DNA of 64,000 bases from Tahibacter soli. Lineage in GTDB: Bacteria; Pseudomonadota; Gammaproteobacteria; Xanthomonadales; Rhodanobacteraceae. Made by a program: the position numbers and the translations under genes. The stretch spans positions 62,001-126,000 of the forward strand of contig NZ_JAOVZO020000018.1 in assembly GCF_025717065.2 (NCBI RefSeq), written 5' to 3'. The notes beneath the pieces are model-generated. The model had not been told where the DNA came from. It did not search any database and was given only the letters and a program-made list of their open reading frames with translations. The stretch's first letter is position 1. Every line of letters starts with the position of its first letter. Positions 15,056 to 32,426 of this stretch are shown here, piece after piece.

Positions 15056-15145
15056 GTCGGACTCCGTCGGGGCGAACGCGCAAGATCGCGGCAACGGCGC
15101 GTCGCGCGCAAGAGCCGCAAGTCGGTTCGCGCTAAGATCGCCGGC

Positions 15146-15790
15146 ATGCGCCGCCATGTTCGCCCAGGGCTTCTCGCGCTGCTGCTCGTCGCGGCGGGCG
15201 CGGCGCACGCCGAAACCGGCTATCGCTGCGTCGACGCGACCGGCCGCGTCGCGTTCCAGGATCGCCCCTGCCCGGCCGGCAGCGCCGCCTCGTCGTTCCG
15301 CTACGAGAAGCCGCCGCCGGGTCCGCCGCCCGCGCCCGCGGCGGTCGAGACGAAGCCCGAAGCGCCGCCGGCACCCGCCGCGCCGCCGCCGCAGCGCGTG
15401 CCGGTCGCGCCGCTGTACGCCTGCACGAACGCGGTCAACGGCGACGGCTACATGAGCGAGACCGGTGTCACGCAGCCGTACCTCGCACCGCTCGGCGCGC
15501 TCGGCTGGCCGCCGCGCACGTTGAACGACACCGCGCGATCGAGCGGCCTGTCGGCGCCGGGCATGAACCGGCCGTCGGTGTCGGCGCCGACCGGATCGAA
15601 CGCACTGGCCGGCGCCTACGTCACGGTGCAGGACGAATGCCGGCGTCTGTCCGATGCCGCCGCGTGCGCCATGCGCCGCAAGGAGATCGGCGACAACCGC
15701 AGCCGCCAGCGCAACGCGTTCAAGGCCGAACGCGCGACGCTCGAGGCGCGCGAGGCCGCGCTCGAGCAGGCGCTGGCCGGCTGTCGATAA
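15146..15790 (+). CDS. Secreted DUF4124 domain protein
   Basis: A 214-residue exported protein. The signal peptide (RPGLLALLLVAAGAAHA) is followed by a DUF4124 module, YRCVDATGRVAFQDRPC, in which two Cys probably form a disulfide. A Pro/Ala-rich linker (about 55-90) leads to a second domain with four Cys and a charged helical C-terminus suited to a coiled coil. DUF4124 proteins are periplasmic and mostly uncharacterised. The gene ends directly at the repeat array. Confidence 0.8.
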   Translation: MRRHVRPGLLALLLVAAGAAHAETGYRCVDATGRVAFQDRPCPAGSAASSFRYEKPPPGPPPAPAAVETKPEAPPAPAAPPPQRVPVAPLYACTNAVNGDGYMSETGVTQPYLAPLGALGWPPRTLNDTARSSGLSAPGMNRPSVSAPTGSNALAGAYVTVQDECRRLSDAAACAMRRKEIGDNRSRQRNAFKAERATLEAREAALEQALAGCR

Positions 15791-15811: not shown

Positions 15812-16438
15812 CGTTGCGCGGCGCGGCCCGCAGCGTTTCATCCACAGGCTTCTCCCGACGTTTGTCCACAGCGGCTGTGGATAAGCACGTCGAAAATTTT
15901 TTGCTTTGTGCAATCGCGCGATGTCCGCGCGACATCGGCGCGCGTGACCAAAGTTTGATCAAACCGTGCCGCACCCGCGCCGCCGCTGGCGATGCGACGG
16001 CAGCCCACAGACTTGTCACCAGGGTTGTCCACAGGGCATGTGGATAGTCGCGCGGCGCTGGCGAAAGTTTCGGCAAACCGTGCGAGAGCGTTGCGCCGCA
16101 ACGCCTGCAGCGATTCATCCACAGGCTTGTCAGACACTCTTTCCACAGGCGCTGTGGGTAACCGCCGTCGCGGCGCGCCGCGAGTTCAATTGGATACAAA
16201 TATCTTTCGCAGAAACGCGCCTGGCGAAAATCTGAGCAAACCGTGCCGCACCCGCGTCGCCGCTCGCGCTGCGGCGGCTGCCCACAGACTTGTCACCACG
16301 GTTGTCCACAGGCCCTGTGGATAGCCGCGCGCCCGCTGCCGAAAGTTCGGCAGATCGTGCGAAAGCGTTGCACCGCAACGCCTGCAGCGATTCATCCACA
16401 GGCTTGCCCGCCCCTCTATCCACAGCGGTCGTGCATTA
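15812..16438. repeat. Direct-repeat array dense in DnaA-box-like sites
   Basis: The 645-bp space between two convergent genes is filled by a higher-order repeat. Two near-full units start at 15961 and 16238 (period 277 bp), and a partial unit covers 15812-15885. Each half-unit holds a (T/C)CCACAG(G/A)CTTGTC-like segment and then a palindrome of the form TTGTCCACAG...CTGTGGATA. The cores start at 15841, 16004, 16118, 16281 and 16395, alternating 163 and 114 bp apart. Against the DnaA box TTATCCACA I count one perfect site (15876-15884, reverse) and ten with one mismatch. Two AT-rich patches lie inside (about 15893-15908 and 16187-16215). The role is unknown: DnaA titration, a terminator cluster or an interspersed repeat family are all possible. 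Confidence 0.85.
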
Positions 16439-17215
16439 GAACGCGTAGCGCAAAAACCCGCCGTCCACAGCGATGCATTCACCCGTCACATAGCTCGCCG
16501 CCGGCAGGCACAGAAACGCGACGGCCGCGGCCACTTCCTCGGGTTCGCCGATGCGGCGCATCGGCGTGCGGTCGAGCACTTCTTCGAGGTATTCCGGATC
16601 GGCCAGCGCCGGCTCCGAGCGCTGCGTGCGGATGTACCACGGCGCGACGGCGTTGACGCGGATGCCGTCCTGCGCCCACTCGCACGCAAGATTGCGCGTG
16701 AGCTGGTGCAGCGCGGCCTTGGTCATGCCGTACGGCGAGCCGGTGCGCACGTGCGCAAGGCCCGATACCGACCCCACGTTGACGATCGCCGCGCTGCCGT
16801 GTTCGGCGAGCAGCGGATGCGCGAGGCGGCAGATCTCGAACGCGCTGACGAGATTGGTGTCGATCAGAAACCGCACTTCGGCTTCGGTGTAGTCGAGCGT
16901 CGGCTTGCGCACATTCGTGCCGACGTTGTTGACGAGCACCGACAGGTTCGCGTCGAGATCGGCGACCCAGTCGAACAGTTCCAGCCTTTGCTCGTGCTGC
17001 GACAGGTCGCCGGCGAACGTCTCGATGCGGCCGTCGGGAAACTCGTCGGCGAGTTCGGCGCTCACCTGCTCCAGATGCGCCTCGTCGCGCGCGACCATCA
17101 ATACGTCGGCGCCGAGGCCGAGCAGCTCGCGCGCGCACGCGTAGCCGATGCCCTTGCTCGCGCCGGTCACGAGCGCGCCGTGGCCGTCGAGCCGCCAGCG
17201 TGATGCAGTGGTCAT
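16436..17215 (-). CDS. SDR-family oxidoreductase, tropinone-reductase-like
   Basis: A 259-residue classical short-chain dehydrogenase. TGASKGIG (about 14-21) binds NAD(P), LVNNVGTN stabilises the central sheet, and the catalytic Ser and Tyr-x3-Lys are visible in NVGSVSG and [10 protein letters not shown]. The C-terminal [13 protein letters not shown] is typical of the class. The substrate cannot be read; the overall pattern is closest to tropinone-reductase-like SDRs. The ATG at 17215 has GGAAGAG upstream; an earlier in-frame start adds 13 unlikely residues. The stop codon touches the repeat array. Confidence 0.88.
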
Positions 17216-17290
17216 TACCGGGTCTCTTCCGTGCTTGTTGGCGAGCCAACGCAAGCGCAGACTTTAGCGCAGCCCGTTGCGGAGAATCTC

Positions 17291-26692: not shown

Positions 26693-27166
26693 TTGTCGAT
26701 CCGATTCCGCGTCGTCGCAGCCCTCAACGCGCGGCCACCATACCGGTTGACATCGGGCAAACCCAACAGCGAAGCGGTTGACCGCGAACCGGGCCCGCTG
26801 TCAAGGGTTTTGCACAGGCCCCGAGCGCGCGTCGCGAAACTGTCACGGAGGCTGTCCAACGCCTGAATTTGTCCAATTCTGACAACGCAAGTTGTTGAAT
26901 AATAAGAACTAAGACAGATTGCTCAAAGATTAGTCAAGCCGAGCGAAGGCCCGTCAGGACGCGCTCTGCGGGCCTCTTCCGGCCGTTCGTCCACAAGGTT
27001 ATCCACAGGGGTTGTGGATAAACGGCAAATGCCTTGGGAAACAAACCGCTGCGGCACATTGCTCGAAAATTGCGAATCCGTTGCCGCGACCGGCACTTTC
27101 GGCCCAGGCAGCCGCCCGTCCGCGGGGTAATCTCGGACAGGGGCATCTCGACCTTTGGGGCACGAC
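26693..27166. other. Divergent intergenic region with an AT-rich patch
   Basis: A 474-bp gap between the sigma operon and the M19 peptidase gene. It contains an AT-rich stretch (about 26865-26935) suited to promoters in one or both directions, the DnaA-box palindrome at 26999-27021, and GGGG eight bases before the peptidase ATG. I see no gene in it. Confidence 0.6.
26999..27021. repeat. Inverted pair of perfect DnaA boxes
   Basis: TTATCCACA (26999-27007) and TGTGGATAA (27013-27021) are both exact matches to the DnaA box and face each other across five bases, forming a 9-bp-stem palindrome. GTCCACAAGG just before it mirrors the first half of the core repeat in the array at 15812-16438, so this is a sixth, better-conserved copy of that core. 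It lies in a divergent promoter region, so DnaA-linked regulation or titration is possible. Confidence 0.75.
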
Positions 27167-30245: not shown

Positions 30246-32426
30246 ATGCCCGATGTTTTGCGCGTCGCCGTGCCGGTGCCGCTACCGCAGCTGTTCGACT
30301 ATCGCGCGCCGCCCGGTGAAACCGTGGCGGCCGGCTGCCGCGTGGTCGTCCCGTTCGGACGCAACAAGCGCGTCGGCATCGTCGTCGGCCATGCCGCGAC
30401 GAGCGAGGTGCCGGCGGGGCGGCTCAAAACGATCGACGCGGTGCTCGACGACGCGCCGCTCATCGGCGCCGAACTGCTCGCGACGCTGCAATGGGCGTCG
30501 CGCTACTACCAGCATCCGCTCGGCGCCGTGCTCGAAACGGCGCTGCCGGTCGGCATGCGCCAGGCCAAACCGCTGCCGTTCGAAGGCGAGCGCGCGCTGA
30601 CGCTCGCCGCCGCCGGCCGCGCCGTCGCGGCCGATCCGCCGCTGCGCCGCGGCACGCGCGTACGCACGCTGTTCGAACGGCTCGTCGACGGCCCGCTCGC
30701 CTACGCGACCCTCGACGAAACCCTGCCCGGCTGGCGCGACAGCGCGAGCGCGCTGCGGCAGCGTAACTTTGTGGAAACTATCGCGTTGTCCACGGCGACG
30801 CTGCCGACGGCGCGCGTGACGGGCCCGACGCTGACCGACGAGCAGCGGGCCGCGATCGACGCCGTCGCGGCCGAACACGGCCGCTTCCGCGCGTTCCTGC
30901 TCGAAGGCGTCACCGGCAGCGGCAAGACCGAGGTGTATCTGCAGCTGATCGAACGCGTGCTCGCGGCCGGCGGTCAGGCGCTGATGCTCGTGCCTGAAAT
31001 CGGCCTGACGCCGCAGACGCTGCGGCGCTTCCGCGAACGCTTCGGCGCGTCGGTGTTCGCGCTGCATTCGGGTCTCGCCGAGGGCGAACGTTCGCGCGCG
31101 TGGCTCGCCGCGGCGCGCGGCGACGCCGGCGTGATCCTCGGCACGCGCTCGGCGATCTTCGCGCCGCTGCCGCGCCTGGCCATCATCGCGGTCGACGAGG
31201 AACACGACGCGTCGTACAAGCAGCAGGACGGCTTTCGCTACAGCGCGCGCGACCTCGCGATCGTGCGCGCCCGCGCGCTCGGCGTGCCGGTGGTGCTCGG
31301 CTCGGCGACGCCGTCGCTCGAGACGCTCGCCAACGTCGAGGCCGAGCGCTACACGCGCGTGCGCCTGTCGGCGCGGCCCGGCAGCGCGCGCGCGCCGACG
31401 CTGCGCGTCGTCGACATGCGCCGCTCGCGGCTCGTGCACGGCATGAGTCCCGAACTCGTCACCGCGGTGCGCGACTGCCTCGCGCGCGGCGAACAGGCGC
31501 TGATCTTTCGCAACCGCCGCGGCTACGCGCCGGTGCTCACGTGCCACGACTGCGGCTGGCACGCCGACTGCGAACGCTGCGCCAAGCCGATGACGCTGCA
31601 CCGCGCGCGCGCGCGGCTCGTGTGCCATCACTGCGGCGCCGAGCGCAACGTGCCGGCGCAGTGCCCCGAATGCGCGGCGCAGACGCTCGCGCCGCAAGGC
31701 CACGGCACCGAGCGGCTCGAAGAAGCGCTCGTCGACCTGTTTCCGCAGGCACCCGTCGTGCGCATCGACCGCGAAACGACGCGACGCCGCGGCGCGCTCG
31801 AAGCGCTGTTCGACAGCCTCGGCCCCGACAAGCCCGGCATCTACGTCGGCACGCAGATGCTCGCCAAGGGCCACGACCTGCCGAATCTCACGCTCGTGGC
31901 GATCCTCGGCGTCGACGACGGCCTGTACAGCGCCGACTTCCGCGCGTCCGAACGGCTCGGACAACTGGTGGTGCAGGTGTCGGGCCGCGCCGGCCGGGCG
32001 AGCAAGCCCGGCTCGGTGCTGCTGCAGACGCATCATCCCGACCACGCGCTGCTCGGCACGCTGCTGCGCGGCGGCTATCGCGGGCTGGCCGCGAGCCTCC
32101 TGGCCGAACGCCGCGACGCGCAGTGGCCGCCTTACGCGCATCTGGCGCTGCTGCGCGCCGAAGCGAAGCAGTTGCAGCAGACGGAGAAATTTCTACGCGA
32201 CGCCGCCGAGGCGGCGGGCATGCCCGACGGCATCGACCTCGCCGGGCCGATACCCGCGCCGATGCCGCTGCGCGCGGGCATGCATCGCGCGCAGATCCTG
32301 CTGTCGAGCGCCGAGCGCGCGCGGCTGCAGCATTTCCTGCCGGCGTGGATCGACGCGCTGCGCGCGCTCGCGTCGGCGCGGCACGTGCGCTGGTCGGTCG
32401 ACGTCGATCCGATCGATTTGTATTGA
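30246..32426 (+). CDS. priA: Primosomal replication helicase PriA
   Basis: A 726-residue superfamily 2 3'-5' helicase that reloads the replisome at stalled forks. The N-terminal DNA 3'-end-binding domain (FDYRAPPGE, VVVPFGRNKRVGIVVG) is followed by Walker A GVTGSGKTEVY (about 221), the DEEHD box, and a zinc-binding insertion of eight Cys at about 433-480 (CHDCGWHADCERC, CHHCGAERNVPAQCPEC). YVGTQMLAKGHDLPN and VSGRAGRASKPG are motifs V and VI. It lies 21 bp after the OCD gene. Confidence 0.96.
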   Translation: MPDVLRVAVPVPLPQLFDYRAPPGETVAAGCRVVVPFGRNKRVGIVVGHAATSEVPAGRLKTIDAVLDDAPLIGAELLATLQWASRYYQHPLGAVLETALPVGMRQAKPLPFEGERALTLAAAGRAVAADPPLRRGTRVRTLFERLVDGPLAYATLDETLPGWRDSASALRQRNFVETIALSTATLPTARVTGPTLTDEQRAAIDAVAAEHGRFRAFLLEGVTGSGKTEVYLQLIERVLAAGGQALMLVPEIGLTPQTLRRFRERFGASVFALHSGLAEGERSRAWLAAARGDAGVILGTRSAIFAPLPRLAIIAVDEEHDASYKQQDGFRYSARDLAIVRARALGVPVVLGSATPSLETLANVEAERYTRVRLSARPGSARAPTLRVVDMRRSRLVHGMSPELVTAVRDCLARGEQALIFRNRRGYAPVLTCHDCGWHADCERCAKPMTLHRARARLVCHHCGAERNVPAQCPECAAQTLAPQGHGTERLEEALVDLFPQAPVVRIDRETTRRRGALEALFDSLGPDKPGIYVGTQMLAKGHDLPNLTLVAILGVDDGLYSADFRASERLGQLVVQVSGRAGRASKPGSVLLQTHHPDHALLGTLLRGGYRGLAASLLAERRDAQWPPYAHLALLRAEAKQLQQTEKFLRDAAEAAGMPDGIDLAGPIPAPMPLRAGMHRAQILLSSAERARLQHFLPAWIDALRALASARHVRWSVDVDPIDLY

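What the first reader, a model, noticed from the sequence alone, without database searches (positions are those of the whole stretch)
15812..16438. Repeat array with eleven DnaA-box-like sites in a convergent intergenic region
The gap between two stop codons holds a 277-bp higher-order repeat (two near-full units, one partial). Its five cores (starts 15841, 16004, 16118, 16281, 16395) alternate 163 and 114 bp apart. Each core carries sites matching TTATCCACA at eight or nine of nine bases: one perfect (15876-15884) and ten with one mismatch. Under uniform base use one would expect about 0.1 such sites in this length. Several sites are paired head to head as palindromes, and two AT-rich patches lie inside. 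This is like a DnaA titration locus (datA), but in a gene setting unrelated to known ones.
Basis: partly seen in the sequence, partly recalled or inferred. Interest (0 to 1): 0.75.

Follow-up and report, generated by a model that had tools for sequence, protein, structure and literature searches.

The report
Tandem DARS-like DnaA-box module array
Between two converging genes this bacterium carries five copies of a small module that looks like a binding site for DnaA, the protein that starts chromosome copying; the modules are arranged more like the E. coli sites that recharge DnaA than like its DnaA sink, and related modules recur in much of its bacterial family.

Summary
In detail: a 277-bp higher-order repeat holds five cores and eleven sites within one mismatch of TTATCCACA; the most in 2000 shuffles was one. 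The array is single-copy, about 800 kb from dnaA, and not at the GC-skew minimum. Six of 7 congeners have it; in aligned relatives 90% of box bases are kept against 67% elsewhere. The three-box module occurs in 86 of 144 family genomes, twice or more in 76. The datA reading needs changing: each intact module has a facing box pair with exactly 5 bp between, the box I/II geometry of the E. coli DARS cores, whereas datA's essential boxes share one direction and need an IHF site; none was found. Eleven kb away (26987-27021) lies a complete DARS-core geometry; such cores stand directly before priA in 30 of 60 fetched loci of the order and class. Best reading: a DnaA-control locus of tandem DARS-like modules that recharges and/or titrates DnaA. 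DnaA binding is inferred, not shown. New variant of a known kind.

The parts
15838..15884 (+). Module 1: box A TCATCCACA (15838+), box B TTGTCCACA (15862+), box C TTATCCACA (15876-, perfect)
16001..16047 (+). Module 2: degenerate A (16001+, 4 mismatches), B TTGTCCACA (16025+), C CTATCCACA (16039-)
16115..16161 (+). Module 3: A TCATCCACA (16115+), B CTTTCCACA (16139+, 2 mismatches, read), C TTACCCACA (16153-)
16278..16324 (+). Module 4: degenerate A (16278+, 3 mismatches), B TTGTCCACA (16302+), C CTATCCACA (16316-)
16392..16438 (+). Module 5, partial: A TCATCCACA (16392+), B CTATCCACA (16416+), C degenerate (16430-, 3 mismatches by eye)
15939..16425 (.). 277-bp higher-order direct repeat (210-nt copies at 15939 and 16216, 84% identical)
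15137..15790 (+). DUF4124 gene converging on the array
   Evidence: Pfam PF13511
16436..17254 (-). Short-chain dehydrogenase/reductase (SDR) gene converging on the array
   Evidence: Pfam PF13561/PF00106
26987..27021 (+). Site 2: DARS-core geometry, box III TCGTCCACA (26987+), box II TTATCCACA (26999+), box I TTATCCACA (27013-); steps 12 and 14
26888..26900 (-). IHF-like sequence ATTCAACAACTTG (1 mismatch to WATCAANNNNTTR) about 90 bp from site 2; 0.15 such sites expected in shuffles of the gap
30246..32426 (+). priA; in the window three genes lie between site 2 and priA, in most fetched relatives none
   Evidence: Pfam PF17764, PF18074; context

Best explanation
The array is a DnaA-control locus built from tandem DARS-like modules. 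Each module would bind DnaA on three boxes, two of which (B and C) face each other across 5 bp, the arrangement with which E. coli DARS1/DARS2 bring two ADP-DnaA AAA+ domains head to head, expel ADP and release apo-DnaA to be reloaded with ATP. Repeating the module in a convergent gap would raise the local DnaA load, so that the locus can both hold (titrate) and recharge DnaA once the fork has duplicated it, 12-14% of the chromosome away from dnaA. Shown here: geometry, conservation, non-origin position, and a DnaA that keeps the box-reading residues checked. Inferred: DnaA binding, nucleotide exchange, and any effect on initiation timing.
For: Eleven boxes, far above chance. In six aligned relatives 478 of 531 box bases (90%) are identical against 1937 of 2900 others (67%); box positions slid by 20-60 bp give 56-72%. 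Facing pair with a 5-bp spacer in modules 1-4 (module 3 with one changed base in the pair pattern), as in DARS1 and DARS2 (14-bp steps). Among perfect facing boxes 0-30 bp apart in 369 genomes of the class, 69 of the 75 places listed (listing cut) have exactly 5 bp. Module pattern in 86 of 144 family genomes, 19 of 26 genera, control 0. Arrays of four to six pairs in the same gene gap in another genus, with different repeat sequence (L196, L199, L286). A complete 12/14 DARS geometry 11 kb away. DnaA keeps D269, R281, R285, L290 and nearly all domain IV positions checked.
Against: No binding or exchange was measured. The box at -12, DARS box III, is weak in the array (3 to 8 mismatches in own-genus modules; the strong third box is at -23/-24 instead), so the array is not a strict DARS core. 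No IHF site in the array; Fis, IHF and DiaA genes were not searched. Congener G003 lacks an array match; 7 of 26 genera and 58 of 144 genomes lack the module pattern, and the two Dokdonella loci have no box within the fetched 10.8 kb. Convergent position and distance from the origin also fit datA.
Confidence: 0.5

Rival explanations
1. A DnaA sink like datA or the Bacillus DnaA-box clusters: the array binds DnaA after duplication and lowers the free pool (with or without ATP hydrolysis), and the facing geometry is only a way to bind DnaA pairs tightly.
For: Many boxes at one locus, convergent gap as at datA, about 12% of the genome from dnaA; clusters that titrate DnaA are known (PMC4451416, passage).
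Against: Essential datA boxes share one direction and need IHF; here they face each other and no IHF site is seen. The facing pair of datA has 3 bp between by my reading.
Confidence: 0.3
2. The modules are sites of another protein that recognises a TCCACA-N5-TGTGGA palindrome.
For: The best conserved half-site is TCCACA; the outer bases of the boxes vary. No binding data.
Against: At site 2 both half-sites are the full DnaA box TTATCCACA, and the step sizes equal those of DARS1/DARS2; domain IV of this DnaA is 62 of 94 identical to E. coli and keeps the HTH residues checked.
Confidence: 0.12
3. A neutral or selfish tandem repeat, or a bidirectional terminator, whose likeness to DnaA boxes is incidental.
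For: It is a tandem repeat that differs in copy number between species; the pair could form a short hairpin. In one other genus modules sit among REP-like repeats (L195, by eye).
Against: Single locus in this genome; box bases kept at 90% against 67%; same site geometry in other genera with unrelated spacers; the three terminator-like hits all lie inside the SDR coding region and are near the shuffle mean of 1.3; three Rfam hits at 19 bits against cut-offs of 38-95.
Confidence: 0.06
4. A second replication origin.
For: DnaA boxes with two AT-rich patches (read).
Against: In the one-contig congener G001 the cumulative GC-skew minimum is a flat valley from about 6.3 to 0.65 Mb around dnaA (455 kb), the maximum is near 3.5 Mb, and the array lies at 1.35 Mb (40 samples of 20 kb).
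Confidence: 0.02

Closest known systems
DARS1 and DARS2 of E. coli (DnaA-reactivating sequences)
   Same: Box I faces box II with 5 bp between (14-bp step); a third box on the same side in the same direction as box II; non-coding, away from oriC
   Different: In the array the strong third box is 23/24 bp, not 12 bp, from box II; five modules in tandem instead of one core; no IHF or Fis site shown; different gene neighbours. Site 2 has the full 12/14 geometry but before priA
datA of E. coli
   Same: Cluster of DnaA boxes in a convergent gap (glyVXY and queG), about a tenth of the genome from oriC
   Different: Essential boxes share one direction and need one IHF site; the array is made of facing pairs without an IHF match
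DnaA-box clusters of Bacillus subtilis and Streptomyces
   Same: Intergenic box clusters away from oriC (Bacillus: passage; Streptomyces: title in a reference list)
   Different: Different phyla; their layout was not compared here

Membership tests
DARS | Box I faces box II with a 14-bp step (5 bp between) | tested here: met
   Modules 1, 2 and 4 exactly, module 3 with one changed base in the pair pattern, module 5 not; site 2 exactly; reference DARS1/DARS2 read
DARS | Box III 12 bp from box II in the same direction | tested here: not met
   Array: only a weak TTNTCC-like sequence at -12 (3 mismatches in window modules 1, 2, 4), strong box at -24. Site 2 meets it (2 mismatches at -12). The array is therefore not filed as a DARS
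DARS | ADP-DnaA binding and nucleotide exchange | not testable with these tools
   Needs biochemistry
DARS2 | IHF and Fis sites beside the core | tested here: inconclusive
   IHF: none in the array, one 1-mismatch match near site 2. Fis sites not tested
datA | Essential DnaA boxes in one direction | tested here: not met
   Facing pairs in modules 1-4; rule from PMC5742627 passage
datA | IHF-binding site within the cluster | tested here: not met
   No match with <= 1 mismatch in 15812-16438
DnaA-box cluster (general) | More DnaA boxes than chance, conserved | tested here: met
DnaA-box cluster (general) | Bound by DnaA | not testable with these tools
   Inferred from box identity and conserved DnaA residues
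oriC | At the GC-skew minimum / dnaA | tested here: not met

The most novel reading that the evidence does not exclude
Gammaproteobacteria well outside the E. coli group carry a DARS-type core, often fixed just before priA, and Rhodanobacteraceae have in addition multiplied a DARS-derived module into tandem arrays in convergent gaps, giving a dosage-tunable DnaA recharging (or holding) station without counterpart in E. coli.
Probability: 0.4. Interest if true: 0.8.

Novelty: new variant of a known kind. Interest (0 to 1): 0.68.

Why it matters
DARS and datA are worked out in E. coli; the 2014 DARS2 paper places the DARS2 core, like Fis, in gamma-proteobacteria related to E. coli (PMC4245941, passage). 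A fixed facing geometry in distant relatives, once as a single core, often before priA, and once as tandem arrays, would make it testable how general DnaA recharging is, whether array copy number sets initiation timing, and whether the replication-restart gene priA is tied to the DnaA cycle.

Tried and rejected
Interspersed repeat: rejected for this genome. Phage or plasmid origin: no match in either collection at distant sensitivity. Second oriC: rejected by skew and position. Structured RNA: no Rfam match near its cut-off. Terminator array. IHF in the array: none. Array beside the SDR gene in relatives at large: of 50 of the 80 SDR loci that I scanned within 1.5 kb downstream (three with less sequence), 5 had two or more boxes; the other 30 were not scanned, and L041, probably the same record as G007:C42, showed only the first two sites because its array starts later. 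Placing dnaA in other one-contig genomes by reading their ends led nowhere. The DnaA query was a wrong-frame ORF; it was replaced, where 0 of 60 loci showed DnaA, DnaN, RecF, GyrB, MutH or UvrB. E. coli has no such core in the priA-rpmE gap (two 2-mismatch boxes only). The base-by-base conservation was made on modules picked by their boxes, so its box values are partly by construction; one search is the test without that bias.

Literature searches. None of the listings named a tandem DARS array or a DARS core before priA (searches returned no paper); only open-licence PMC papers are held, so absence is not proved. Seen: passages of PMC4585315, PMC8682772, PMC5742627, PMC4245941 and PMC4451416; one section of PMC12371093; the abstract and outline of PMC11317965; the rest as listings only.

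Full report
What is there. The gap between the DUF4124 gene (15137-15790 +) and the SDR gene (16436-17254 -) holds eleven sites within one mismatch of TTATCCACA, one of them perfect, in a 277-bp higher-order repeat. Two thousand dinucleotide shuffles gave a mean of 0.031 sites and never more than one; 1240 other windows of that length in the 64 kb gave at most two. The repeat resolves into five modules, each with box A (+), box B (+) 24 bp on, and box C (-) 14 bp further, so that B and C face each other across 5 bp. A is degenerate in modules 2 and 4, B has two mismatches in module 3, and C is degenerate in module 5.

Where it is. The window lies in contig C18 of a 6.65-Mb genome in 23 contigs. 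The family is probably Rhodanobacteraceae: contig C42 of congener G007 has the same length, 158,635, as JAEUPP010000049.1, a Rhodanobacteraceae MAG; the genus may be Tahibacter, a guess from recall. The full array has one place in the genome; other matches are at most 47 bp (40 of 276 candidates scored). Exact TCCACA-N5-TGTGGA pairs occur in the genome three times in the array and once at window 27002, nowhere else. dnaA is on the same contig about 800 kb away. In the one-contig congener G001, dnaA is at 455 kb, site 2 at 1339 kb and the array at 1350 kb; in forty 20-kb samples the cumulative GC skew is lowest in a flat valley from about 6.3 to 0.65 Mb and highest near 3.5 Mb. The array is therefore not the origin.

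Conservation of the array. Six of 7 congeners match; G003 does not. In five (L169-L172, L175) the array lies between the DUF4124 and SDR genes; in the sixth (L173) the SDR gene is not in the fetched contig. In L171 a 6-O-methylguanine-DNA methyltransferase gene lies between array and SDR. In alignments of these six with the window, 478 of 531 box bases (90%) are identical and 1937 of 2900 others (67%); box positions slid by 20-60 bp give 56-72%. In genus g14, probably Dyella (G020:C1 has the length of NZ_SAYT01000001.1, Dyella amyloliquefaciens), the same gap carries six, five and four exact pairs 113-128 bp apart in L196, L199 and L286, with different spacer sequence, and single pairs in others (L194, L201, L283, L287). 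The module pattern TCCACA-N17/18-TCCACA-N5-TGTGGA is found in 86 of 144 family genomes and 19 of 26 genera, with two or more copies in 76 genomes and three or more in 44; the reversed control is 0. Copies per genome were counted, not tandem position; in the fetched loci many stand 113-207 bp apart. A second module locus lies in the convergent gap of accD and a PAP2-family gene (L272, L273 and others). A profile of modules shows boxes at 1.40-1.75 bits per base and a right flank at 0.06-0.14, but the modules were picked by their boxes, so the box part is partly by construction; the A-B link, with GGCTT, was not picked and has 0.58-1.00 bits.

Site 2. At 26987, 26999 and 27013 three boxes stand 12 and 14 bp apart with directions +, +, -. 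Among fetched family loci, 20 hold a perfect TTATCCACA-N5-TGTGGATAA pair. In 16 of them priA is the next gene on that side; in the other 4 (L177, L178, L180, L181) the dipeptidase and transporter genes that also stand there in the window follow, and priA lies beyond the fetched stretch. All 20 and the window have TCCACA at the -12 box. The three-box pattern with at most one mismatch is in 160 of 200 genomes of the order and 240 of 369 of the class (the two samples overlap), control 0 and 1. Of the 60 loci that these two searches returned, 30 (19 of 30 and 11 of 30) have priA downstream, 65-316 bp from the aligned start of the protein, and all 30 have the same orientation towards priA. The other 30 have other neighbours, among them folE2 and ksgA; none of the 60 shows dnaA, dnaN, recF, gyrB, mutH or uvrB. 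129 of the 369 class genomes have no match at all.

Comparison with E. coli. I read DARS1 (between bioD and uvrB) and DARS2 (upstream of mutH) from NC_000913: boxes +, -, - with steps of 14 and 12 bp in both; that these are core boxes I-III rests on the rule in PMC5742627 (equal spacing in both, box I opposite to II and III; passages) and on their places. The same paper names the head-to-head contact of box I- and box II-bound DnaA as the prominent feature of DARS (also PMC8682772, passages). datA has its essential boxes in one direction and an IHF site. In a search for perfect facing boxes 0-30 bp apart in 369 genomes, 160 matched and 69 of the 75 places listed have exactly 5 bp; the listing was cut. 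The array modules thus share the box I/II half of the DARS core, and site 2 shares the whole layout.

Reader protein. The DnaA of this genome has 261 residues identical to E. coli DnaA (467 aa) and 62 of 94 in domain IV. Of the domain IV positions that I checked, only A414 (S here) and K443 (T) differ; of the AAA+ positions, D269, R281, R285, L290 and R334 are kept while R245 (T) and S268 (C) differ (the choice of positions is recalled, D269 and L290 are named). Hda is present above its cut-off. Fis, IHF and DiaA were not searched.

Verdict. DnaA binding is likely (about 0.85, inferred). The DARS-like reading is preferred over the datA-like one because of the fixed facing geometry. The weak -12 box and the lack of an IHF match mean that the array is not filed as a DARS; it most likely works like one, perhaps with titration as a second effect.

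Noticed in passing
window 26987-27021; L207-L266: DARS-core geometry (12/14), directly before priA in 30 of 60 fetched loci of the order and class, always in the same orientation.
   Followed up: yes
L272, L273, L277, L284, L193, L195 (other genera): Second locus of the same modules in the convergent gap of accD and a PAP2 gene, with further modules about 4.2 kb away beside trpF in some.
   Followed up: partly
about 60 bp left of box A in own-genus modules, e.g. window 16064-16080: Conserved motif like CTGGCGAAA-TTTGCGCAAACCG, unexplained; it may be a further binding site or shared ancestry.
   Followed up: no
L021 1779-1822 (dnaA-dnaN gap of this genome): Two perfect boxes pointing away from each other, and TAACTTGTTGAAT, an IHF-like sequence (by eye): the likely oriC.
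   Followed up: no
L195 3100-4100: GTGGGAGCGCACCCTGTGCGCGA-type REP-like repeats interleaved with the modules (by eye).
   Followed up: no
G003 (congener): The only one of 7 congeners without an array match; it keeps a site-2 pair. Loss or an assembly gap (680 contigs).
   Followed up: no
L206 2952-2974 (E. coli, upstream of mutH): A further facing arrangement with a 14-bp step, one side with 3 mismatches, in the DARS2 region.
   Followed up: no
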